A stretch of 64,000 bases of DNA from Coniochaeta sp. PMI_546. Lineage: Eukaryota; Ascomycota; Sordariomycetes; Coniochaetales; Coniochaetaceae. The notes under the pieces were generated by a model, which saw only the letters and a program-made list of their open reading frames with translations, ran no database searches and was not told the DNA's origin. The stretch's first letter is position 1. Each line of letters opens with the position of its first letter. The stretch is taken from NCBI GenBank assembly GCA_021432605.1, contig MU271149.1, positions 2,356,001 to 2,420,000 on the forward strand, written 5' to 3'. A program made the position numbers and the translations under genes. Shown in pieces: positions 32,518-64,000 of this stretch.

Positions 32518-33318
32518 ATGGCTGAAGAGCGCGCCGCCCCGTAAGTGTTTCCCCCTGACGTGCTCCGATCTCGGGCTGGTCTGCCTTCGTTCATAATGAT
32601 CCTGGCCGCGGGAGTTGGTTTTCTGCGAGAAGAAGACTTTTGCTGATATGCTTCAATCGCTTCCAGTCTCCGTCTCGGCAGCATTGCCCCCAACTTCAAG
32701 GCCGACACCACCACTGGCCCCATTGACTTCCACGAGTTTATTGGCGACAACTGGGTCGTCCTCTTCTCTCACCCCGAGGACTACACCCCGGTGTGCACCA
32801 CCGAGCTTGGAGAGATGGCTCGTCTCGAGCCCGAGTTCACAAAGCGCGGCGTCAAGCTGATCGGTCTCTCGGCCAACACTCTTCAGAGCCACGAGGGCTG
32901 GATCAACGACATCAAGGAGGTCACCGGCTCGCAGGTCAAGTTCCCCATCATCGGCGACAAGGAGCGCAAGGTTGCCTACCTGTACGACATGATCGACCAC
33001 CAGGACACCACCAACGTCGACTCCAAGGGCATTGCCTTCACCATCCGTTCTGTCTTCGTCATTGACCCGAAGAAGACGATCCGCACCATCCTGTCGTACC
33101 CCGCCTCCACCGGCCGTAACAGTGCCGAGATCCTCCGCATCGTCGACTCCCTCCAGACCGGCGACAAGCACAAGGTTACCACTCCTATCAACTGGACCCC
33201 TGGTGACGATGTCATTGTCCACCCCAGCATCAAGACCGAGCAGGCCAAGGAGATCTTCCCCAACGTTCGCGTTGTCAAGCCATACCTGCGCTTTACTACT
33301 CTCCCCAAGGATGCTTGA
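32518..33318 (+). CDS. 1-Cys peroxiredoxin (Prx6 type)
   Basis: Exon 1 (32518-32540) holds only the first seven codons and two bases; exon 2 is 32667-33318, after a 126-nt intron (donor GTAAGT, acceptor TTCCAG). The 224-aa product has LRLGSIAPNFKADTTTGPID, the peroxidatic Cys in HPEDYTPVCTTELG (T-x-x-C), the conserved Arg region and the long C-terminal extension of Prx6-type enzymes (INWTPGDDVIVHPS, RVVKPYLRFTTLP). No presequence is seen, so it should be cytosolic. It reduces peroxides using the single Cys with an external reductant. Codon bias is extreme (AAG, GAC, ATC, CTC), in line with high expression. Confidence 0.95.
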
Positions 33319-44096: not shown

Positions 44097-46695
44097 TCAC
44101 TTCCGGTGGTCCAGCCGTTTCTGCCTCAAAAGAAGAGTGCCACCCAGCCCAGTCAACGAAAATATCAGGGAAAGACCTGCGTACACCGCTCGTCAGTATT
44201 TTTGTCGGGCAAAGACTCAGCCGTACCCGGCGCAACTTAAAAACTTACCGTGACTATACCACAGGCCGTCGACGTAAGCACCAACAACAGCTTGTCGCAA
44301 GGTGCCATGTGTTCTGCTGACGTAGCCCACGTCCGATATTGCTTTAGCTATGACCTGTTGTGCCCAAAGTCAGCAGCGTTTCTCTTCGACCTGAAACCAA
44401 AAGGGCCTCTCTTGGTTCAGTAGCGGATATCCAGCTGGTTACCTTATCTCTCCGGACAGCGTCAAGCCCGAGTTCATCAAGGCGACTCTTCAGACCTATC
44501 CTTAGGAATTGACGCATGGTCGCGCTGGAACTGACGAGGCCAGTCATCATGGAGACCCTTGTTGATAAGTACATCATGGAGACAGCGGGAGCCATGTATT
44601 CTGCATTGACCACAGCTTGTAACGAGATGAACAGGGCGCTCTGCGCAATGCCGGTACCGAAACCTCTGTGAGACCACGTCGTCAGTCTTGGGCCTGATCG
44701 CCGTCGAACCTGGGAACCTTCGAGGCGACTCACCCCGGCATGATGTACAGCGACTCGAGCCAGTTCGTGTTTCCGTGCCATCTCAGCATCAGCAGGAGGT
44801 AACATATGGAGGAAGATATGGTGGCAAAGGTGCACAGGATCTTGTACCGTCCGGATCTAAGGTGATGGTCAGCAACCCGAAACCAGGGCGTACATCTCAA
44901 GCGTTTTGTGCCAGTTGGCTTCGGTTCCAGTCCCATGGTGCTCACCGTTTAATGAAGACTCCGGAAAGCAGGCCACCAAGACAGTTTCCTGCAACGGCAG
45001 GAAACAGGTGTGCGCCAGCCTCTGCGTTCGAGGTTCTCGCTGTGATCTGGAAATACAGTGGAACAGAAAACATCATCTGTCAAAGTGACATAGTCGTGGT
45101 TAGCTCAACAGCGGGGAAAAAGCTACCAGGGCACAATGAAAAGCGTGCGTACTCCAATCTGGGCGGCGCCCTGCAAGCCAAGGATCACATATGACAGGAC
45201 AGCATCCCGGTTGTGGAATATCTCCAGCGGGATAATAGGCTCTTCTGTGCGCTTTTCGACAGCAATGAAGATGAGGAGGAGAACAAGGCTCGAAGCAAAC
45301 AGGATGGCGATGATGGGATGGCTCCATGGGAGGTGGTCTCCTCCCAACTCGGCCGGAACGAGGAAGGCCAGAATCATCGCGCCGAAGAGGAATGCGCCCC
45401 TGAAGTCGATACGGTGAAGCTGCTGCCAAGCGCTCTTGGAGGACCCTTCTCCAGATTCTGGAGTTACGCGGTTGGTCGTGGATGCAGGCAGACAGATGGC
45501 ACAGAGTATCAATGCAAAGCCCACCACCGGGGTCTGCCCAAGGAACGACCTACGTGCGTTGACGAGAGCCGAGTTAGCCAACGCCGCCGGTGTCCAACAG
45601 GACGGAGATGATAGACGTACCAACGCCAGCCGATTACATCGGCGAGCCATCCTCCCAGAGGGCCGCCGAGGCTTCTCCCGGTTGTAGCGGCAATATTCAC
45701 CCACGAACGCCATTGAGCTACATCGCGTATAGGGACAAGATCTGGTGAATGTTATCAGATACCACTGCTTCTGTGTCGTCCTCGCCCAGGGGACCAGGAG
45801 AAGGCCGCACTCACCTGTGATAAGAATAGACACGAGGACTGTCATTCCAGAGCTACCCGCCCCGGATATCACGCGGCCGAGGATAACCTGCAACATGGAC
45901 TGGCCCAGGCCGCTTCAAAAGTCTGTCAGCCACACGCCAGACCATGATTTGCCCTGGATTCTCACTCACACTATCGCGCTGTTTAAGTCCACTAATTAGC
46001 TGCTGTACTAACATCTCATGTGGTCGACCTGAACTAACCAGCCAAGCGCGAAGATCGCGTATGCAAGGAGAATGACAGCCTTCCTGCCATAGATATCACT
46101 GAGTTTTCCATACTGCTCGAAGCGTCAGCGGCCATCCCCGATATAGGGCACATCTTTGTTCGGGACAGGACGGCCTTACAAGTGGCTGTGTAACGGCCCC
46201 GGCAAGCGCAAACCCCGTAATCAACCACGTCGAGTTGGCCAGGTCGTTGAAGTCGGATGCGATCAGAGGGTGCGTAGCCATGACGATGGATCCGTCAATC
46301 TCGGCAACAAGGATACCTGGCGATTGCGCAACATTTTTTAGCATACTGCAGTGAGGCGACCAAAGGGGTCTCAGATCTTCAGGGTCTTCAGGGTCCTCGT
46401 GGGTGTGAACCTGGCCACAGACAACGGAAACAAACATACCGATAAGCAGAATTGAAATGGTCTTTGCGACATGTCTGCGAGACGACAGCTCCTTGGAAAT
46501 GTCGCCGACATCCTCTACTCGAGGAGCCGTTTCTGCATCGACTTCCGGTGTGCTCGCAGTCGACAGATGCGACGACAAGTCCGAAGATACGGACGACACT
46601 TCGCTTCCGCCATATGGATTTGCATCAGATGCTTTCAAGAGAGGAGAACTTTCAGAAGATGACTCTACTGTCGTGACCTGAGAGTTGAATGCCAT
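44097..46695 (-). CDS. MFS transporter, DHA2/vacuolar amino-acid permease type
   Basis: Eleven exons: 46695-46440, 46316-46180, 46112-46039, 45912-45815, 45741-45621, 45549-45135, 45076-44946, 44856-44734, 44665-44443, 44354-44249 and 44176-44097, about 587 aa. An acidic Ser-rich cytosolic N terminus (residues 1-75) precedes 14 expected spans. Diagnostic text: ILLIGILVAEIDGSIVMATH, the motif A loop GKLSDIYGRK, QVILGRVISGAGSSGMTVLV, and SVPLYFQITARTSNAEAGAH. The order matches Vba/Fnx-type vacuolar basic amino-acid or drug:H+ antiporters. The ligand is unknown. Two details are less sure: the junction after the third exon, where relatives have about three extra residues, and the donor after 45135 (GTGCCC), the only one that avoids a stop and keeps FIMMFSVPLYFQ. 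It is divergent to the arylsulfatase. Confidence 0.85.
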
Positions 46696-52738: not shown

Positions 52739-54095
52739 TGATGAGTTTCTGTCAGCTGCCAAGCTCATGTCGCCCAAATTCACTGTCGCGTTATGAAGGA
52801 GCGTAGCAGGGTGAAGCTCAAGGGCTGACCAAAACTTGGAGCGGGATGGCAGTAGCGAGGATGTGCCGAGATAAACTGTTCGATACCAGTGTTAACCAAG
52901 AGATTTAGACTGCTAGATACCCAATAGTTCGATGTGTTCAACTCCCATACACGCTGTCGGTTTAAAATTGTGCGCTGCCTGAGAGGACACTTCCTCAACG
53001 ACGTCAGCGCACCTCGCAGTCTGCAACGGACCTGCCAGTTGAGAAATCATTACTCGTGCTGACGAGCTGGACTCCATCCAAACATTGGTCACTGGGACTG
53101 AGAGTAGGGGCTGTCCAAGGGTTGTCCATTCGGCGGCCAGAGCTTCTAGACGCGAGCTCGTGTCATAGTAGGCAGCGTCTTTGGCCGTTGTCTGACCGAA
53201 CTCAGCATCGTGGCCGTTTGTTGCAGAGACACGATAGAGTCATGAACGTTTTCCAGCCATTGCCCGTCAAGGCTATAATTGTCACAGTCTTTTTAAGCGG
53301 CAATCAGGCTGACTCCTCCTGGAAACCTCAATTCTGTCGCGAGGTCCAGAGGCATGGTGATTTTCTTCAGCATAAACAATCGTTGAACCCATCAAGAGTG
53401 CTTCCAGCGATGCTCGACGGGCCTCTTGGCTGCAGCCGAAGGGTTTGCCGCCCGGGTCGACGTTGGTAGCTAGTCCGTGCCCAGTAAGTGTCTATACATC
53501 GATAATAGATAGCAACTGCCTGGAGTAGCTTCTTATTCTGATTGCGATACCCTTCTTGTGTTCAGCGACGCCTCACGGTCACCGTCTGACCGTGCTGCTT
53601 GGCTATGTTGGCCAAAAGTGGACTCAGTAGGAACAAACGCATGAAGCTATTCAATGGCTCGAAACCGCCGACTCAAGAAGCGTCTGAGAATTTCTTCCAT
53701 GATTGTTTGTATCGAAAAGAACTGCGTCTCGTCGCAACATGCCAATGAGGTTATACAAGGGCGTGCCGTTGTTGTTGTGGATGTTGGGGTCGATGACGCG
53801 ACTAGTCCCGCGGTTAGATTGAAAAGAGAGCGGAGAGTGTAGCGACCATCGGCCTTCTATCGCTCGATGCCAGCAATTCGAGGGAAAGCCTGCAACCCAT
53901 CTAATAACACAGAGCCAGCTTCGCAAGGACATGACATTTGCATACCACAGGAAAGACGGAAGCCACGAGCAACCACGAGCAACAGTGTCTGGGGTGGAAA
54001 ATTCCGGATGACGGAATTATCAATCTGCACTATACTGCCCCATATTTCTTCGGATCAAGTGTGGGGCGGATATCTTGGCAGAATAATTTTTGATC

Positions 54096-54104
54096 TTATC
54101 AGAT
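54096..54104 (-). promoter_or_regulatory. ATCTGATAA siderophore GATA-factor site
   Basis: Perfect match on the minus strand to ATCWGATAA, the core bound by SreA/SRE/Urbs1-type iron-repression GATA factors. About 820 bp before the SidI-like ATG. Confidence 0.7.
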
Positions 54105-54222
54105 GCAGGTGGGCCCCCACCCAGTCCCGACTGTCGTCGCATTTCGCGCAAATGTACATGTACGGTGTAGTGTACCTAAGCGATGGTCGGATCATCTCGT
54201 CGTCTGTTTTCCAGGTTGGAAC

Positions 54223-54231
54223 TTATCTGAT
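54223..54231 (-). promoter_or_regulatory. ATCAGATAA siderophore GATA-factor site
   Basis: Perfect ATCWGATAA on the minus strand, about 690 bp before the SidI-like ATG. Confidence 0.7.
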
Positions 54232-54585
54232 CGAACTAAAGAGATCGAGACCCGTAACAAAATTGGAGAGCCCTGCAGAATCTTCCCAATGGCATTCTCT
54301 GATTGGATTCAGCAATCCGCCTCGGCTGCCGCTTGCCGCACCCTCCTGGTTCGACGGCGCGGACCTCAAACCAACAGCGAACCAGCCGTCCCTTAACGGC
54401 CTCTCGGCATAGGGTTTTTGTCCAGCCCTCGTGTAAGTGTACACGTGTAGGGGACCAAATGACGACATATATCCCCCACAGAGGACACACTGAGACTGGG
54501 CAGTGTGGACCTTCGAAGGTTCCGACACCGGCTTCCCGTTGCGCAATTCAGTTAGGAGCGACAAAGATGAGAAGTGCGAAAAGTC

Positions 54586-54594
54586 TTATCTGAT
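54586..54594 (-). promoter_or_regulatory. ATCAGATAA siderophore GATA-factor site
   Basis: Perfect ATCWGATAA on the minus strand, about 330 bp before the SidI-like ATG, with a one-mismatch copy (ATCTGATTA) immediately downstream on the plus strand. Confidence 0.75.
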
Positions 54595-54922
54595 CATCTG
54601 ATTAGATCCAGCGTGCTTGGCAGCCTCCCTTTGGTAATTTCCGCTCTAGTGTACACGTGTAGCTGTGCTGGAATCAGTCGCCCACATTGAGGAGCACAAA
54701 TGACAGGGGCATGTCTACTGGTTAGATGCATAACAAGGAGGAATACATTGGTACCCAATTGCTCCGAAGCAAAAGCATTACGCAATGGGACCAACGTGTT
54801 GCAGCGGCTTATTCAAGTCCAGTCCGGGTCATCAAGCTCAGCACTCCGAGGTTCCATCCCCCTCAGATCAGCAAAAGGCGAGCCATATACATCTACACCA
54901 TTGATCGTTGAACCAGCGAACT

Positions 54923-56891
54923 ATGTCAAGTTCAGCTTCGATTCAATCCTTGAACGAGGTCCTTCCACAGCCGGAAAGACAACGGCTGTCAATTCTACAT
55001 GGACCGACAGATCCGCCGCTCGTTGATCTAACTCTAGGAGAGCTCTTGAACCTGCAATGCCTTCATTATGGCACGCGAGAGTGCCTCGTGATTCCCTGGA
55101 CTGGCGCGAGATGGACGTACAACGAACTCAACTACCAAAGCTCTCTGCTGGCTGCGGCTTTGCTGGACATGGGCATTGGTGTTGGGGATAGAGTGGGTAT
55201 TATGGCAGGGAACTGCGAGCAGTACGCAGCAGTTTTCTTTGCTGTCACGCGAATTGGAGCAATATTGGTGATCTTGAACAACACCTACACGCCAACCGAA
55301 GCCCGCTATGGCCTCGATTTCTCGGGTATGAGCTGAGTGGCGGTCGATTTTCGTCCTTGTGAGATGTGAGTGCAATACTAACGGCTATTGCGCAGAATGC
55401 AAGGTCTTCTTCACAACAAAAGCCATTGGACGTCTCGACAATACACCATTATTGGCTGAACTGGGGTTAGATCCGCAAGCACCCACGACTGTCATTCTCA
55501 GGGGCGACTCAGAAGGCTTCAGCACGTATCTCGACACGCTGCAGCGCGGCAGCAAAGCTGGACCAGACTTGCTGTATTCGGTTGAGAGCAAGGTGCTCCC
55601 ACATTTGATATGCAATCTCCAGTTCACGAGCGGAACCACTGGACATCCAAAAGCGGCAATGTTAAGCCACCAGTAAGACAACATCTACCATTCAGTTCTT
55701 CCACTCTAGCAACACTGAGAGAAGCATACTGATCACCGGCACCAGCAATATTGTGAATAACTCCAGGTTCATTGGAGACCGGATGAGGCTTGGTCCCAAC
55801 GATGCACTGTGCTGTCCTCCTCCTCTATTCCACTGTTTTGGATTGGTACTAGGGCTGATGTCCGTTGTTACACATGGAGGGAAGATTGTGTACCCTGCTG
55901 AGGTATTCGATTCGAAGGCTACATTGGCCGCGATCGTCGACGAGCAGTGCACAGCAGTCCACGGAGTTCCTGCCATGTTCGACAGCATTCTGAGTCTGCC
56001 AGAGGCGAAGGACCTCAATCCCAATCAATTGAAACTTCGAACTGGAATTATCGCTGGGGCTCCAGTACCCAGATATCTGATGGAACTGCTGGTGTCAAAG
56101 CTGGGTATGACGGAATTCACATCCAGCTACGGATTAACTGAGGCGTCACCAACCTGCTTCAACGCCTTTACCGACGATCCTATTGATGTGAGGTTGAGCA
56201 CCGTGGGTACTATTATGCCACATGCACATGCAAAGATTGTGGATCGTGATGGCCGAATCGTTCCAGTCGGTGCCCGAGGCGAACTGTGCATCTCTGGCTA
56301 CCAACTGCAGGCTGGTTACTGGAACAACTCGGAGAAGACAGCCGAGGTTATGGTCCGCGATGAATCAGGAGTCCTCTGGCTACATACAGGCGATGAGGCC
56401 GCCTTCGATGACAGGGGTTATTGCACGATCACCGGGAGGTTCAAGGACATTATCATCAGAGGCAAGTGTTGCTCTTGGACCGATGTCGACATCCGCCTGC
56501 CCCGTCGAAGACTCCAAGTTGTGCTGGGCTAACAAGAGACATCTTTCTAGGTGGCGAGAACATATACCCCCTTGAGATCGAGGAGCGCTTAGCAGCCCAT
56601 CCTTCTGTGGCAATGGCTGTTGTAATAGGGCTGCCAGATACACATTACGGAGAGGTTGTGGGTGCCTTCCTCGCGCGAGAGAATGGGAGTCCTGTACCCA
56701 CCGACGACGAGGTAAGGGATTGGGTCAGGCGCAAGCTCGGGAAACACAAGGCGCCAACTCACATTTTCTGGCTTGGTCAGAATGGGGTCCCTTACGATGT
56801 TCCCCTGACGGGAAGCGGGAAAGTCCGCAAGTTTGAGATGGCTCAGCTAGGCCGCAAACTGCTGGACGACAGGGTGAAGTCAAAACTATAG
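54923..56891 (+). CDS. sidI: Peroxisomal acyl-CoA ligase, SidI-like
   Basis: Four exons, 54923-55325, 55396-55672, 55746-56461 and 56551-56891, encode 578 aa. The ANL-superfamily motifs are all present: LQFTSGTTGHPKAAMLSHHN (P-loop), SSYGLTEASPTC, LWLHTGDEAAFDDRGYCTIT, GRFKDIIIRGGENIYPLEIE and the catalytic-Lys region TGSGKVRKFEM. The C terminus is SKL, a perfect PTS1. Acyl-CoA ligases of this type include fungal SidI, which makes mevalonyl-CoA for extracellular siderophores in peroxisomes. The SidI assignment rests on the adjacent SidF-like gene and the iron-type GATA sites upstream; by sequence alone it could be another medium-chain ligase. The third intron (56462-56550) uses a GC donor. 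Confidence 0.72.
56462..56550 (+). other. GC-AG intron in the SidI-like gene
   Basis: The exon ends ...ATCAGAG and the intron starts GCAAGT and ends TTTCTAG. Only this junction restores the invariant IIIRGGENIYP; the nearby GT (GTGTTG) gives the wrong frame. Confidence 0.8.
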
Positions 56892-57210
56892 AGACGGGTA
56901 GCTCTCCTATCGTCATCATGTACACTACTAGTGGAGGGCAGAAGCACGGTATGCTAGCAAAAGACTTCAGACACACCTCGCCATCTCTTGACAAGCCAAC
57001 AATACGCCCTGTCGCATCTCGACAACGACCGCTAGTCCATCTTACAATCTTGCTATTTGAGTGAAGACCCCAAACTTTCACCAAGGACCGCAGAGGAGTA
57101 CAATCAATTGGGGCTCACGAGCCAGTTATGCAAGTGGGCCGAGCAACACCGCTTCGCCGAGCTCGGGGGTTTCAACGGAAAAGAAGCGGGCGTTTGCCAA
57201 GCCGCTAAAA

Positions 57211-57219
57211 TTATCAGAT
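57211..57219 (-). promoter_or_regulatory. ATCTGATAA siderophore GATA-factor site
   Basis: Perfect ATCWGATAA on the minus strand, about 400 bp before the SidF-like ATG; paired with the site at 57244. Confidence 0.75.
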
Positions 57220-57243
57220 CCGCCTTCTGGCGTCCGAGTAAAG

Positions 57244-57252
57244 TTATCTGAT
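57244..57252 (-). promoter_or_regulatory. ATCAGATAA siderophore GATA-factor site
   Basis: Perfect ATCWGATAA on the minus strand, about 370 bp before the SidF-like ATG. Both sites of this pair continue with CC after the core, so they look like a tandem element. Confidence 0.75.
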
Positions 57253-57622
57253 CCGATGGTGCATCGAATCCAGTCTCATCACGGTCACATTTTGACCAAC
57301 CAACTTGTCAAGCTTCTGACACAAGGTGGGGGCGTGTGTGTGCGAATTCCTGATCCATGGGAGAAAATTATAGCCCCGGTTCGAAGAAATAAAATGGCTC
57401 AAGCACACGTGTACCGAAGTTGCAGGAATCAGGAGGCCTCGTTATACAGATTCGCCCTGAATGCAATGCAGCTGTGCAATAAAGCGAGCGTGACTTCGTT
57501 GTCCCGTTCGGTTCTCCTTCCAAGACGACTGCATGTCATGGCAGCAAGTTCAGGGTCCACACTGGCTTATCTGCTGTTCTCACCATTTTCTCTGAGCAAA
57601 CAGGACAAGCCCAGACTTCATC

Positions 57623-59001
57623 ATGACAACTCGACGACTAGGCGACTACGCTGTGTCGCAGGACCCCGTTCTAAAATTGCCTCACCCCTATCTCACTTCG
57701 TATCGTGTTCATAACGCAGAGGGCTCCGGACTCTACAAGCTCAAAATCGACGACGAGACCACACTCGGCGCAGCAAATCTGGGAGAGTCTTCTATTATAT
57801 TTACCGAGCCTGAGGACTTGAGGTCGGGTGACAGACCGGATGACTCCAACAACACGGCTTGGGCAAGAGCGCGACGCAGCCCTCTAGTCGCCGTTCAATG
57901 GAAACGAGACCAACAACCGGTGGTCTCTGCGGTATGGCTGTTGATCTATGTGGTCTTTACCATTCGTCCGGGTGAGGAGTTCTTCCGCCTGAAGATGCAA
58001 GGACCGGGCGCAGACTCTCTGGCTGCACAACTCAAAACCATCGCCTTGGCAATTGATCATCCACAGCCACTCAAGAATGGCGAAGTCAATGTTACGAAGA
58101 ACTCTGAGGAGCTTCTTGTTCTGCGCGGGTCCTTCTGGCAAGGGGCAGGGTCGCCTTTCGGCCCTCGGCCGATATGGGTCCTCGACGATAAGGATTTACG
58201 GCCAGAAAACCGCATTTCTTCCTACCCTTTAACACCAGTGGACTATACAATGACATTCAATCCTCCTGCGGCCCTATGCTGGCATCCAAGGCGACCCGTG
58301 AAGCCGAGACCCGGCTCTGTGATCTACAGTCGATATATTCCTCACCTCAAAGAAAACTTTTCCATGGAAGCACTTGACTATGAGAACAAAGAGCACCTGC
58401 AGCTCTTCCATCAGTGGCAGAATGATCCGCGCGTGTCCCAGGGCTGGAACCAGACCGGTACGTTGGACCAGCATCGAACCTATCTTCGACAGGTTCATGA
58501 GGATCCACATCAACTTGCGATATTAGGCAAGTTCGAGGATACATACTTTGCCTACTTTGAGGTATATTGGGCAAAAGTGAGCACTGCAACTCCAACTCAT
58601 CTTGGAACATAGCTAATGGATGTGATTGTTTTGCGTAGGAGGATCGTCTAGGCGGTTATTACACCCCGGGAGATTTTGATCGAGGTCGGTACAGTTTGGT
58701 TGGAGATGTGAGATTCCGCGGTCCTCATCGCGTCAGTGCATGGTGGTCAAGCTTGATGCATTACCTGTTCCTAGACGATCCTAGGACCATGTACGTGGTG
58801 GGGGAGCCAAAGTACACCAACACCTCTGTCCTAATGTATGACCTGATGCACGGCTTTGGGTTGGACAAATTTGTCGATCTGCCAGACAAACGATCCGCAT
58901 TTGTGAGGTGCTCGCGGGAGAGATTCTTCCAGCTATGCCCGCTGGACGAGAATCCCAAGGTTATGGGTGGGACTATGGTGGGATTGGTCCCCAAACTCTA
59001 A
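57623..59001 (+). CDS. sidF: N5-hydroxyornithine acyltransferase, SidF-like
   Basis: Exons 57623-58576 and 58639-59001 (62-nt intron) encode 438 aa. The C-terminal half is the siderophore-type GNAT acyltransferase domain (IucB/RhbD-like): [100 protein letters not shown] and [12 protein letters not shown]. The N-terminal half is the less conserved part seen in fungal SidF and SidL. SidF moves anhydromevalonyl from CoA to N5-hydroxyornithine, giving the building block of fusarinines and TAFC. The C terminus is PKL, a variant PTS1, agreeing with the known peroxisomal location of SidF. Length is close to known SidF proteins. An alternative is a SidL-like N5-acetylase, but SidL lacks a peroxisomal tail. 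Confidence 0.82.
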
Positions 59002-59235
59002 AAGTAGGTATAGAGGTCAAATCTAGTGGCTGATGCATTGAGCCTTCTTGTGGCCAAGCCCTTCTGAGCGGACTATAATTGAAAGGCAGACCCCATCTCA
59101 GAACTTCAAAGCATTGTATAGAATACTCTTGTACATTGACGCACAGAAGCTACCTTAAAACTATCGAAAAGAAGTGACATCCCCAGCCGCTCATGTCGCT
59201 GACTATTTCAGCATTCATACCGAACTCCGTGAAAG

Positions 59236-60751
59236 CTATGCCTTTAGCCCGAGCTGGAGATAATTCCAACAAACTGTATCTACGTCAGCTTGAAGATTTC
59301 GTAACCGAAGAAAAGGACGCTTACTCGTGAACCCTAAGTCTTTCCCGAAAAAGGCTTCCATCACATCCTCTCCAGAACTGATGCCGCCCTCTGGCCAGTA
59401 TGAGACGGCTTGCTTGCCAATCGCGAGTCCAATCATAGGCTGAATCTCGTCCAACGTTACAAACTCAGGCACAGAACCTGACAACCTTTGCCTGAAAAGT
59501 TGGTTGATGTTCACCGCCGCCAAATATCCCATATGCATCGCGGAGCCACAGCGTTTGATACCAGACCATTTAGCCAGATCTCCAATAGCAAAATGTTCCG
59601 AAGAGTTTGGAATATCACCTGAGAATGACAGGCTATGATTTATCAGTGGGAGCATGCTGAAATCGGTCTCTGCTACTTACTTGGGGTGGATTTTCACATA
59701 TCCTTCCATATCCAGAGCCGATTGGGGTATGTAAGTTGTGGCCGGTACGCTTTTCGAAATTGCCATAATGACCTCGCTGGCTCTCATCACATGTGCATTG
59801 TTGAACCTCAATTCGAAACACTTCGACTGGTTCTCTGTCTTGACCTCGTGAACAGCCTCGAGACGATGCGACATGAGCACATGAACATTAGCTTCACGAA
59901 CCAGCTCCAGGGCCTTATCTTTCACTTCATCCGGCAACGGCTCAGCAGACAGTAATTTATCTCTCGAATGGACGAGAGTCACCTCAGTGTGTGGTTGGAT
60001 CAATTTCAGCTCTGTAGCCATCTCGATGCCAACAGCCCCTGTAATTGTAATAACCGGTTCAGCATGAGGACTCGTAAAGTCAAGGTGATCATGTTCCAGA
60101 AACATACCTCCTCCCACGACCACAACTCCGAGTTTAGCATCCTGAACGTTGCGTAGGTGATCTCCAACCTCAAACAAGTATTGCTTGCGCCGCAGCGATT
60201 GAGGCACGACAGGCCATGCCCTCCTTAGTCCAGTTGCAGCCACAAGATAGTCGTATTCCAACTGCAGTTCTTCAGTGCTGTTATGAGTGGCTACTGAAGC
60301 AATCTTGCTCGAAGTATTGAGGCCCCGAACACTTCCTTGAATAAGCCGGATGTTGGGCATCTGGAGTGCTGATATGTTCTTATATTCCACCCATGCTTTC
60401 TCCGCGTAACTCTCCGATGCCAGAGCAAGCGGGGAGCCAATGGTATGATCTTCGATCGTCAGCCTTGAGTAGTGAATTAAGAGTGTTTCACCAGGGCCAT
60501 GATAAAGACGGCAAAGGACCATCGTAAGGTCACTTACAAAAACCATCACGCTCATCCACTATGGTGATATCTGCACGGGTTTCTATTTCCGAAGCCACGG
60601 TCTCTAGTGGATCATCGCTCTTATTCCCACACCGTGGATGTCTGTTGAGACAAAGGTCATGTAGATTCAGGGCTGCAGATAGGCCTGCATAAGAGCCACC
60701 GAGTACTAGTACCCTGAAGGGTCGAGTTGCATCAACCAAATTAGAACCCAT
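59236..60751 (-). CDS. AIF-like FAD/NAD(P)H oxidoreductase
   Basis: Four exons, 60751-60538, 60449-60108, 60038-59681 and 59632-59236, encode 436 aa. The FAD motif is VLVLGGSYAGLSAALNL near residue 15. DERDGFYHTIGSPLALASES and LEYDYLVAATGLRRAWP are typical of the fungal AIF/AMID (pyridine nucleotide-disulfide oxidoreductase) group. The NAD(P) motif LGVVVVGGGAVGIEMATELK is rebuilt across an intron, and the second FAD-binding Asp lies in HFAIGDLAKW. No redox-active CxxC is visible. A perfect siderophore-type GATA site lies 437 bp upstream, and the gene is next to the SidF-like gene. A role in ferric-siderophore or quinone reduction is an inference from that setting. Confidence 0.85.
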
Positions 60752-61504
60752 TTGGCAGAGTAAGGCTTTAGACACGTGCTAGGCTCGTATGAACTTCCGA
60801 AACCCTGCGGTCCGTGATGAGCCGTTACTTGATCTGGTTCGTGGACTGGATTACTTGGAGAATGGCAGCTTCTCAATCTTTAAGTGGAAGGACATATGCA
60901 GCTAAAGGGGCTCTTCAGCACTGAAGAGCAACCCTCTTGGTGTTTGGGCGCGGCTTGGTCCTCCCGGACCGATCAGACCTTGGCCCTTTGAAATCATTGG
61001 CAAAGCACGTTATGGAACTCCGAGTTCCACACGGTCAGTACTCGCCTGTCCGGCATCGGCTTGATGGCTTTCGACCTTACCTCTCCAGTCTCCACTAGCT
61101 AGCGCTTAGAACACGATTCCGGGCCAGCTCAGATGTCGCACAAGCTTACAGGGATGCTTGTCCGGTGGATTGGCATCCACCTCAATCTTATCAGATCATC
61201 GGTATGACCAGGATGCGGAATCCGCTATCAACTCGTTGGCTCTGCAATGGGTCAAGATGCGCCGGCTCGATTGAGCGGACGCTGCGTGTCCCACGTGTGA
61301 TGCTGGAAGTCACAAACCATGAGTCACGCCGAGACAATGCTCTTGTATCGCTCAATTTATGCATATTTTCACGACTCTTGCTAATCTCCCTTACCCACGA
61401 CTAGGTCTAACTAACCAAGCTTCCACATCTTGCGCAACCGCGAAGCAAATCTGTATCGAAGTTAACTTGCACCGACATGATGAACTAATGAACCAAGCTA
61501 CATC
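60752..61504. other. Promoter region of the AIF-like oxidoreductase
   Basis: No gene recognised. It contains one perfect GATA site at 61188. Confidence 0.45.
61188..61196 (-). promoter_or_regulatory. ATCTGATAA siderophore GATA-factor site
   Basis: Perfect ATCWGATAA, 437 bp upstream of the minus-strand AIF-like gene. The core lies on the same strand as that gene. Confidence 0.7.
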
Positions 61505-62742
61505 TCAGCTCCATCTCAACACTGCTTTGATGGCCTTCCCAGATTTGGTGTCTTCCATAGCCTGCTTGAAATCGTTGACATCATAAACAGTTGTTAGTTT
61601 CTCTAGCGGAAGGTTGCCGTTGGCGTGCATGTCTATGAGGTAGGGGATGAACTGCCACAGCTAGGTGTTAGCCAAGCTCTCTGAGCCACTTGTTGAACTG
61701 TCTCACGATGGGCTGACTTTTGACGGCTGGCTGTCCCCTTCAGTGCAACCGACATATTCCTTGCCAAAGGTTAGGTGCTCCATAATGTCAATGGAGACAT
61801 GGTTTCCAGGGCCGGGGGCGCCGACGGTAGCAGCTCTCCCTCTGGAACCAAGCGCATCTATCATGGTCCCAACCACGGTAGGGACGCCGGTGCAATCGAC
61901 TGCGAAATCAACACCATGAGGTGGGCATATAGACCGGATCTGGCTCAAGACGTCGACATCTGAGCCTAGGACTCCATGTGTCGCACCTAAACTTCTTGCC
62001 AGGTCGAGGCGGCTGCGCTGCAGATCAATCGCGATGATAGTCCTCGCGCCCCTCATCTTGCCTGCCATCACGGCTGCCATGCCAACAGAGCCGACACCGA
62101 AAACTGCAAGAGTACTTCCGGGACGAAGGTTCAAGGAGTTCAGGACCGCGCCGGCCCCAGTCTGGATACCGCATCCTAGGGAAGCGAATAACTCCAGGTT
62201 GGTGTTTGACGACACTTTGATAACGCTGGACCTATGCACGATAGCCTGCCTGGAGAATGAGCTCTGCCCGAAGAAGGAAGAATAGAATGGCTTTCCGTCC
62301 TTCGCTGATAATATAGCAGCAGATCCGTCAGGCCTTTGGCCCCCGAAGTTTCTGTCGTTGAAGGTATGGCAGTATGCAGGATGCCCAGATTGGCATTCGG
62401 CACATGCTTCGCAATGCGAGAAAGAGAGCAGCACCTTGTCTCCCTTGGTAACTGAACTCACTTCCTCTCCGGTCTCTATTACCACTCCAGCACCTGTTAT
62501 TCATGTTGTCAGATAGGTGGTTCTAGCTTCGAGATATGTATCAACGAACCCTCATGGCCCAGTACCGCGTTTGGAGCACAAGGCAGCTTCCCCACGGCGC
62601 ACGATAAATCTGAATGGCAAATCCCTGACGCATGCACCTGGACGAGCACTTCGTCTGGCTGTAGGTCAGCCAAATAGACTTCGCGTAGCTCGAAGTTTCC
62701 GTCGAGTTGTGGAACAACCAAGGCCGTGGTTGTTCTGGACAT
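61505..62742 (-). CDS. Zinc-dependent alcohol dehydrogenase
   Basis: Exons 62742-62550, 62493-61718 and 61651-61505 encode 371 aa. The catalytic zinc ligand is in GICHSDLSC and the family motif GHEGAGVV is rebuilt across the first intron. The structural-zinc loop has HCEACAECQSGHPAYC (four Cys). Then come LGCGIQTGAGAVLNSL and the cofactor motif VFGVGSVGMAAVMAGK followed by IIAIDLQRSRLDLA, where the Asp favours NAD. The last exon adds FIPYLIDMHANGNLPLEKLT and GKAIKAVLR, so the gene is complete. It resembles aryl-alcohol dehydrogenases of the medium-chain superfamily. Substrate unknown. The P450 lies upstream on the same strand. Confidence 0.92.
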
Positions 62743-63311
62743 GCTGAGTATGAATCTGAATCAAATTTGAGGTGCTTGACTGGATTGACGTTTGTTTCTG
62801 TCAAACCTATAATGAAAGGCCAAATGCTCTTATGTACAGTCCAGCACGTGAAAAGCAACATCACGAGCAGTGCACGATCCGCGCGGCAAGTCCATATCTC
62901 CCTGCGTGGCTGTCCCGAGCAGCGGAACCGAGTGGGCTTGCGGAGTGGCTGTGGGATGGAACTAACGCCGTAGCGCCCGCTCCCCGCACTTGTCGAGTAT
63001 CCATCACCTGGGATGCCCCGTCGAGGTCAAGGTCCAAGTCTACATGTAAGGTAGATTTATTTGGTTCATGTGAGAAACCGTGTACCGCGCACAAGCAAGC
63101 GTTTCGGGTTCTGGTAAGACGCGAGTGGTTCAGAACGCCAGGCTTCCCAGCGAAGGTATGTGGCTGCATGTTGCCGTTGAGCGTGGGTTTACAGCTGATC
63201 TGTCACTATGCTTCTCATTACACGAATTGCAAGAATATCTTTGACAAGCCTATTCTATTGCAGACAAAGGTATCGCAGAAGATGGTGCATGACCAATCAT
63301 CGGCAGTGTGA
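62743..63311. other. Gap between alcohol dehydrogenase and P450
   Basis: Promoter of the alcohol dehydrogenase and 3' flank of the P450. No ATCWGATAA site is seen. Confidence 0.4.
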
Positions 63312-64000
63312 CTATTTTCTGGCAATTGAGGAGATAGGCTGTGTTTTCCACTGCTGTGTTTCCGGATCCAAGCATTCTTTCTCTGCCGCCTTCCACTCTC
63401 TGATGACCAAGTCAGCCCGCTCCTTGGACCGGGGCGTGATTTTCGCTTGGAATACCTCCGGCATACAGACAAACCCTTGCGTCAATCTCTCTTGATTTGG
63501 TATGATGGGCTGTCCTTTGTCGTCAATCGCAGGCTCGATGTTGAAAGCCCAGAGCATCCGCGACATCCCGAGGAAGAGACTGCGCTCGGCGACGTGGATC
63601 CCGGGGCATATTCGACGCCCGGCGCCAAATGTGAATTGGTCACGTTTCGACGCCTCTGGGTTTGCTGCGGCATCTGCCAGGCTTTGGCGGTCATCTCTGT
63701 AACGGTCTGGGTTGAATTTTCGCGGTTCCGGGTGACGGGAAGGGTCCATATGAATGCTCCAGACATTGTTCATGACACCAGCATTCTTCGGAATGAGAAA
63801 TCCTTCGTAGTAGTCGTCTTGAATGACTGCGTGAGGAACCGCTCCCAAAATTGTCGTCGGCATCCAACGAAGAGTCTCTTTCATACAAGCCCTGATGTAC
63901 TGGAGGTCAGAGTCGTCATCCATGGTGGGGAGCCTACTGAGGCCAACAACTCGATCAATCTCTTCTTGGGCCTTTCTTTGCACTTCGGGATAGAGCAACA
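63312..64000 (-). CDS. Cytochrome P450, C-terminal part (cut by window edge)
   Basis: The last 229 codons of a P450; the gene continues past the window end. Visible motifs are the K-helix E-x-x-R (MKETLRWMPT), the meander (PRKFNPDRYRDD) and the heme-binding loop F-x2-G-x-R-x-C-x-G as FTFGAGRRICPGIHVAERSL with the axial Cys intact. The text is like fungal CYPs related to O-methylsterigmatocystin oxidoreductase. The closing tail is rich in Lys and Glu. Substrate unknown. With the alcohol dehydrogenase downstream it may oxidise an alcohol or aromatic group in a secondary-metabolite or detoxification pathway. Confidence 0.9.
   Translation of the reverse strand, partial: LLYPEVQRKAQEEIDRVVGLSRLPTMDDDSDLQYIRACMKETLRWMPTTILGAVPHAVIQDDYYEGFLIPKNAGVMNNVWSIHMDPSRHPEPRKFNPDRYRDDRQSLADAAANPEASKRDQFTFGAGRRICPGIHVAERSLFLGMSRMLWAFNIEPAIDDKGQPIIPNQERLTQGFVCMPEVFQAKITPRSKERADLVIREWKAAEKECLDPETQQWKTQPISSIARK

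What the first reader, a model, noticed from the sequence alone, without database searches (positions are those of the whole stretch)
54096..61196. Six perfect iron-type GATA sites concentrated in one 7 kb locus
ATCWGATAA is the core of SreA/SRE/Urbs1 binding sites in fungal iron regulation. Counting both strands it is expected about once per 65 kb of random sequence. I found six exact copies (54096, 54223, 54586, 57211, 57244, 61188), all in intergenic DNA and all upstream of the SidI-like, SidF-like and AIF-like genes, and none elsewhere in the window. All six read as the same strand (TTATCWGAT on plus).
Basis: partly seen in the sequence, partly recalled or inferred. Interest (0 to 1): 0.78.

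Follow-up and report, generated by a model that had tools for sequence, protein, structure and literature searches.

The report
Iron-repressor sites at fungal siderophore genes
A fungal DNA stretch carries a tight group of the known iron-repressor binding sequence in front of three neighbouring genes, two of which help make an iron-scavenging molecule, so it most likely switches that scavenging off when iron is plentiful; this is a well-known kind of control, here also reaching a less understood third gene.

Summary
Mostly confirmed. The window holds seven exact ATCWGATAA, not six (0.66 expected). Six lie upstream of a SidI-like ligase (three), a SidF-like transacylase (two) and an AIF/FSP1-like oxidoreductase (one). 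All 6 vATCWGATAA of the window fall in three upstream regions totalling 2,485 bp, 3.9% of it. Plain GATA sites there are not enriched (4 found, 4.62 expected).

Best explanation: operators for an SreA/SRE-type iron-sensing GATA repressor. Same-consensus sites upstream of siderophore genes are published for Aspergillus, Histoplasma, Paracoccidioides and Blastomyces, so this is a new member of a known kind.

SidI, SidF, oxidoreductase in this order appears to match the Metarhizium coprogen cluster, with Penicillium copD a likely relative (sequences not compared). And the same regions hold 5 of the window's 8 ACACGTG sites, a possible activator element found post hoc. No expression, binding, whole-genome or cross-species data were available here.

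The parts
54096..54104 (-). ATCTGATAA, preceded by C (fits vATCWGATAA, not RATCWGATAA); -827 to -819 from SidI ATG
54223..54231 (-). ATCAGATAA preceded by G; -700 to -692 from SidI ATG; the 11-nt stretch 54222-54232 is repeated at 54585-54595
54586..54594 (-). ATCAGATAA preceded by G; -337 to -329 from SidI ATG; overlapped or adjoined by one-mismatch copies at 54588(+), 54594(-), 54596(+)
57211..57219 (-). ATCTGATAA preceded by G; -412 to -404 from SidF ATG
57244..57252 (-). ATCAGATAA preceded by G; -379 to -371 from SidF ATG; 33 bp from the previous site
61188..61196 (-). ATCTGATAA preceded by G; 437-445 bp upstream of the AIF-like ATG
45752..45760 (-). Seventh exact copy, preceded by T, in a predicted 73-nt intron (45814-45742) of an MFS gene; judged chance/intron sequence
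54923..56891 (+). SidI-like acyl-CoA ligase, 4 exons (predicted), 578 aa, C-terminal SKL
57623..59001 (+). SidF-like N5-hydroxyornithine transacylase, 2 exons (predicted), 438 aa, C-terminal PKL
59236..60751 (-). AIF/FSP1-like pyridine-nucleotide oxidoreductase, 5 exons (predicted), 421 aa, no CxxC or CxxxxC
61505..62742 (-). Zinc alcohol dehydrogenase family gene (predicted, 3 exons); no ATCWGATAA in 62743-63300 upstream of it; probably outside the regulon
54436..54450 (.). AGTGTACACGTGTAG, first copy of an exact 15-nt repeat with CACGTG core
54648..54662 (.). AGTGTACACGTGTAG, second copy
57404..57414 (.). CACACGTGTAC upstream of SidF
60772..60778 (.). ACACGTG, 27 bp from the AIF-like ATG
61292..61298 (.). 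CACGTGT, 546 bp from the AIF-like ATG

Best explanation
The six intergenic sites are operators for an SreA/SRE/Urbs1-type iron-sensing GATA repressor. In iron-replete cells the repressor binds (G/A/C)ATCWGATAA and shuts down SidI (mevalonyl-CoA ligase), SidF (anhydromevalonyl transacylase) and, through one site, the adjacent AIF/FSP1-like oxidoreductase; iron starvation relieves this, and the genes help make the acyl arm of an extracellular coprogen- or fusarinine-type siderophore. Shown here: site sequence, place, excess over chance within the window, gene families. Inferred: presence of the repressor in this fungus, binding, iron response, and SidI orthology.
For: Six of six vATCWGATAA in the window lie in the three upstream regions; HGATAR outside the extended sites is not enriched there (4 vs 4.62 expected), so the excess is specific to the iron-type form. 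Rank 1 of 7,560 permuted patterns. Published precedents, seen as passages: ATCWGATAA 5.4-fold more frequent upstream of 49 SreA-regulated A. fumigatus genes than genome-wide, and matching in vivo sites of U. maydis and S. pombe orthologues; Histoplasma (G/A)ATC(T/A)GATAA upstream of all siderophore cluster genes, with in vitro binding by Sre1 cited; Paracoccidioides siderophore cluster except sidD; Cladophialophora sidI and others; FgSreA ChIP-qPCR at ATCWGATA promoters. SidF identity: 7qf6, E 1.6e-130.
Against: No binding or expression data. The background is one 64 kb window, because no whole genome is held. The sites lie 329-827 bp from the start codons, while the functional A. fumigatus ftrA site lies 217 bp from its transcription start; transcription starts are unknown here. 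No orthologous promoter could be compared: the one scan made for SidF relatives, in viral contigs, confirmed none. I saw no NRPS, SidH, SidA or siderophore transporter, but scanned only 36 of the 69 listed ORFs directly plus five spliced models. The AIF-like gene rests on a single site. No NCBIfam model reached its curated cut-off for any of the three proteins (best 25 rows shown).
Confidence: 0.88

Rival explanations
1. Chance clustering of a 9-mer, noticed because the reader knew the motif.
For: One of the seven copies (45752) lies in a predicted intron of an MFS gene, so stray copies do occur, at about the expected rate.
Against: 0 of 100 shuffles reached 7; Poisson P for 6 in 2,485 bp at the rest-of-window rate 6.5e-11 (the regions were chosen after the sites were known); rank 1 of 7,560.
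Confidence: 0.03
2. Sites for another GATA factor (nitrogen AreA/NIT2 or others) rather than the iron repressor.
For: [quoted passage not shown] AreA/NIT2 recalled).
Against: HGATAR outside the extended motif is not enriched (4 vs 4.62); the ATC extension is the one published for iron repressors; two of the three genes look like siderophore enzymes.
Confidence: 0.06
3. The SidI and SidF sites are real operators, but the single site at 61188 is incidental and the AIF-like gene is outside the regulon. (Can hold together with the main explanation for the other two genes.)
For: Only one site, 437 bp from the AIF-like ATG and 309 bp past the stop of the ADH gene upstream on the same strand.
Against: Expected number in all three regions together is 0.03-0.04, so chance is small; it fits RATCWGATAA; oxidoreductase genes of the same description sit in coprogen clusters of Metarhizium and Penicillium; Histoplasma OXR1 has the motif and is induced by low iron (same family not tested).
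Confidence: 0.2

Closest known systems
SreA regulon element ATCWGATAA of Aspergillus fumigatus (PMC2610380, passages seen)
   Same: Identical 9-mer; the regulon includes sidF
   Different: Gene order: sidI and sidF lie in different clusters in Aspergillus
Histoplasma siderophore cluster consensus (G/A)ATC(T/A)GATAA (PMC2275787, passages seen)
   Same: Upstream of SID3 (SidF orthologue), SID4 (acid-CoA ligase) and OXR1 (oxidoreductase); 5 of our 6 sites fit it exactly
   Different: The Histoplasma cluster also has NRPS, SID1, ABC and other genes, not seen here. Whether OXR1 is the same family as our AIF-like protein was not tested
Metarhizium robertsii coprogen/dimerumic acid cluster and Penicillium roqueforti cop cluster (PMC8656255, PMC12278577, passages seen)
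   Same: MAA_05335 SidI-like, MAA_05336 SidF-like; SidF-like EFY99278.1 followed in number by a pyridine nucleotide-disulfide oxidoreductase EFY99279.1; copD has 416 aa, ours 421
   Different: SidD/copA NRPS and an ABC transporter belong to those clusters and were not seen here; adjacency in Metarhizium is inferred from consecutive numbers; neither EFY99279.1 nor CopD was compared with our protein

Membership tests
SreA-type iron GATA operator | Exact ATCWGATAA | tested here: met
   Six sites upstream of three genes
SreA-type iron GATA operator | Flanking base of the longer consensus, v (Blastomyces) or R (Histoplasma) | tested here: met
   v: 6 of 6; R: 5 of 6 (54096 has C); the stray 45752 fails both
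SreA-type iron GATA operator | Over-represented upstream of iron-acquisition genes relative to local background | tested here: met
   Within this window only
SreA-type iron GATA operator | Over-representation relative to the whole genome | not testable with these tools
   No whole genome held
SreA-type iron GATA operator | Bound by the SreA orthologue and required for iron repression | not testable with these tools
   Needs gel shift or ChIP and reporter assays
SidF transacylase | Near full-length similarity to A. fumigatus SidF, with GNAT domain | tested here: met
   7qf6 E 1.6e-130 over residues 15-420 of 438; PF13523 E 2.9e-48
SidF transacylase | C-terminal PTS1, (S/A/C)(K/H/R)(L/M): usual in Ascomycetes, not defining (basidiomycete SidF homologues lack it) | tested here: not met
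   Ends PKL, one residue off the strict consensus
SidI mevalonyl-CoA ligase | AMP-binding ligase domains | tested here: met
   PF00501 E 1.9e-85, PF13193 E 9e-15
SidI mevalonyl-CoA ligase | Peroxisomal signal; PTS1 in Sordariomycetes, PTS2 in other Ascomycetes | tested here: met
   C-terminal SKL; no PTS2 match in the first 84 residues; rule from PMC3709128
SidI mevalonyl-CoA ligase | Orthology to SidI rather than another acyl-CoA ligase | tested here: inconclusive
   No SidI sequence in reach; the 60 of 232 PDB matches shown are general acyl-CoA ligases and related adenylating enzymes; adjacency to SidF supports it
FSP1/AIFM2-type oxidoreductase | Best sequence match to FSP1/AIFM2, two Rossmann glycine motifs, no CxxC or CxxxxC | tested here: met
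   8wik E 1.9e-20; motif scan
CBC-HapX site CSAATN12RWT | Present in all three upstream regions | tested here: not met
   One at SidI (54732), none at SidF or AIF-like
SrbA site TCANNCCA | Enriched in the three upstream regions | tested here: not met
   One found, 1.47 expected

The most novel reading that the evidence does not exclude
The FSP1/AIF-like flavoprotein is a dedicated, iron-repressed component of the coprogen-type siderophore pathway, working as an NAD(P)H flavin reductase (for example of ferric siderophore or a quinone) and not as the disulfide enzyme suggested for Penicillium copD; and the three genes share a second element, (T)ACACGTG(TA), read by a bHLH-type activator that opposes the SreA-type repressor.
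Probability: 0.25. Interest if true: 0.5.

Novelty: new member of a known kind. Interest (0 to 1): 0.3.

Why it matters
The site cluster shows a conserved fungal iron switch in another genome, probably a Sordariomycete, and that raw sequence alone can reveal it. What would matter more is the extension: it puts an uncharacterised FSP1-like oxidoreductase under the same likely control as siderophore enzymes and offers a testable candidate activator element.

Tried and rejected
Whole-genome background: not available, so chance was judged from the window only. Known partner motifs CSAATN12RWT and TCANNCCA: not shared by the three regions. CCAAT boxes: 5 in 1 kb upstream of SidI against 1.8 expected, 1 against 1.31 at SidF and 2 against 1.35 at the AIF-like gene, not pursued. 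The seventh site as an iron element of the MFS gene: rejected, because it fails the v flank and sits in a predicted intron; a rebuilt protein without that intron, with other splice corrections made at the same time, scores 139.7 bits on MFS_1 against 31.9 for an automatic model. Strand bias as a signal: rejected, because orientation relative to the genes is mixed. NRPS in the window: two AMP-binding cores, no condensation or carrier core by simple six-frame patterns, which introns could hide. Rfam and tRNA scans: nothing. The Zymoseptoria and Sclerotinia papers, passages only: no gene like ours named in a coprogen cluster; the one pyridine oxidoreductase passage in the former concerns a gliT homologue, and in the latter an FAD-linked oxidoreductase belongs to the intracellular-siderophore cluster, with iron release proposed as its role. 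NCBIfam gave no match at a curated cut-off. Structure prediction was not used, since a spliced protein is not given letter for letter by the window's DNA.
Full report
Observation. The motif scan finds seven exact ATCWGATAA in the 64,000-base window, all on the minus strand: 45752, 54096, 54223, 54586, 57211, 57244, 61188. Dinucleotide shuffles give a mean of 0.66 and never 7 in 100; Markov expectations of order 1-4 are 0.50-0.67 from the whole window and 0.38-0.62 from the window without the locus. As a control for pattern choice, 7,560 patterns with the same letters were counted: only ATCWGATAA reaches 6 in 54001-61300, and one near-copy of it reaches 4.

Gene context. My splice models give SidI-like 54923-56891 (+), SidF-like 57623-59001 (+), AIF-like 60751-59236 (-) and a zinc alcohol dehydrogenase 62742-61505 (-). 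SidF is firm: A. fumigatus SidF structure 7qf6, E 1.6e-130. The SidI-like gene has AMP-binding domains, sits next to SidF and ends in SKL; its orthology was not proven. PMC3709128 (passages) states that SidI orthologues of Sordariomycetes carry PTS1 while other Ascomycetes carry PTS2, so the window is probably from a Sordariomycete. The AIF-like protein best matches FSP1/AIFM2 (8wik, E 1.9e-20). The models are predictions without transcripts.

Where the sites are. Three lie 329-827 bp upstream of SidI, two 371-412 bp upstream of SidF, one 437-445 bp upstream of the AIF-like gene. In the regions 53923-54922, 56892-57622 and 60752-61505 (2,485 bp; the 1 kb limit for SidI was my choice) lie 6 of the window's 7 ATCWGATAA, 6 of 6 vATCWGATAA and 5 of 5 RATCWGATAA. 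HGATAR outside these sites is at background, 4 against 4.62. So the excess is specific to the extended, iron-type form. Two stop-to-stop ORFs of at least 150 aa overlap four of the sites but match no Pfam family.

The seventh site. 45752 lies in a predicted 73-nt intron, GTGAGT...CACCAG, of an MFS transporter gene. The site ends 10 bases before the intron's 3' end, and its CTGAT, with the A 13 bases before that end, also fits a fungal branch point (my reading; consensus recalled). A rebuilt protein without this intron, with other splice corrections made at the same time, matches MFS_1 at 139.7 bits against 31.9 for an automatic model. The site has T before ATCTGATAA and so fails the longer consensus. 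I take it as chance.

Literature, passages only. ATCWGATAA is 5.4-fold more frequent upstream of 49 SreA-regulated genes than in the genome and matches repressor sites of U. maydis and S. pombe (PMC2610380). (G/A)ATC(T/A)GATAA is upstream of every gene of the Histoplasma siderophore cluster, including SID3, SID4 and OXR1 (PMC2275787). It is also upstream of the Paracoccidioides siderophore cluster genes except sidD (PMC4144954). A motif vATCwGATAA was found in Blastomyces (PMC2848559); SreA consensus sites were noted upstream of iron-regulated Cladophialophora genes (PMC10382037); FgSreA occupies ATCWGATA promoters in Fusarium (PMC10602907); a promoter study of ftrA found an SreA motif of this kind there (PMC10294635). 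The kind of element is therefore already known; this locus is a new instance.

The third gene. In Metarhizium robertsii MAA_05334, 05335 and 05336 are SidD, SidI-like and SidF-like (PMC8656255), and the proteins EFY99276, EFY99278, EFY99279 and EFY99280 are SidD, a siderophore acyltransferase, a pyridine nucleotide-disulfide oxidoreductase and an AtrH-like transporter (PMC12278577). By accession order, SidI, SidF, oxidoreductase is the order seen here; this is an inference and the sequences were not compared. The Penicillium authors suggest sulfation or disulfide chemistry given copD and copF. The protein here has five cysteines and no CxxC or CxxxxC, which speaks against disulfide chemistry for this protein. 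I saw no SidD: no condensation or carrier core by simple patterns in six frames, and no such Pfam hit among the 36 of 69 listed ORFs scanned directly or the five spliced models. The window ends 1.3 kb beyond the alcohol dehydrogenase gene, so what lies further on that side is unknown.

A second shared element. An unplanned word count showed ACACGTG enriched in the same regions: 5 of the window's 8 sites, Poisson P 4.2e-7, about 0.003 after correction for 8,192 words. CACGTG is 5 of 17, the best of 64 palindromic 6-mers, P 1.8e-4 uncorrected; 2 of 2,000 resampled region sets reach five. Upstream of SidI it is part of an exact 15-nt repeat, AGTGTACACGTGTAG, at 54436 and 54648. The regions were chosen because they hold GATA sites, not for this word, but the search was post hoc. 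The published SrbA and CBC-HapX patterns are not shared by the three regions. None of the 25 papers listed of 534 held CACGTG; none of the 15 listed of 100 held both CACGTG and siderophore.

Verdict. The mechanism is inferred from close precedents; binding and iron response are untested.

Noticed in passing
54436-54450, 54648-54662, 57404-57414, 60772-60778, 61292-61298: ACACGTG-type E-boxes concentrated in the same three upstream regions as the GATA sites; 5 of the 8 in the window
   Followed up: partly
45752-45760: Seventh ATCWGATAA, in a predicted MFS-gene intron near its 3' splice site
   Followed up: yes
59236-60751: FSP1/AIFM2-like oxidoreductase without CxxC or CxxxxC, possibly the companion gene of coprogen clusters (copD)
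   Followed up: partly
57211-57255: TTATCWGATCCG occurs twice 33 bp apart, close to three helical turns
   Followed up: no
54586-54604: Composite of one perfect and three one-mismatch ATCWGATAA copies on both strands
   Followed up: no
56462-56550: Predicted SidI intron with a GC-AG boundary (GCAAGT)
   Followed up: no
32647-33318: 1-Cys peroxiredoxin-like ORF (AhpC-TSA, 1-cysPrx_C)
   Followed up: no
63314-64000: Cytochrome P450 ORF cut by the window end, beside the alcohol dehydrogenase
   Followed up: no
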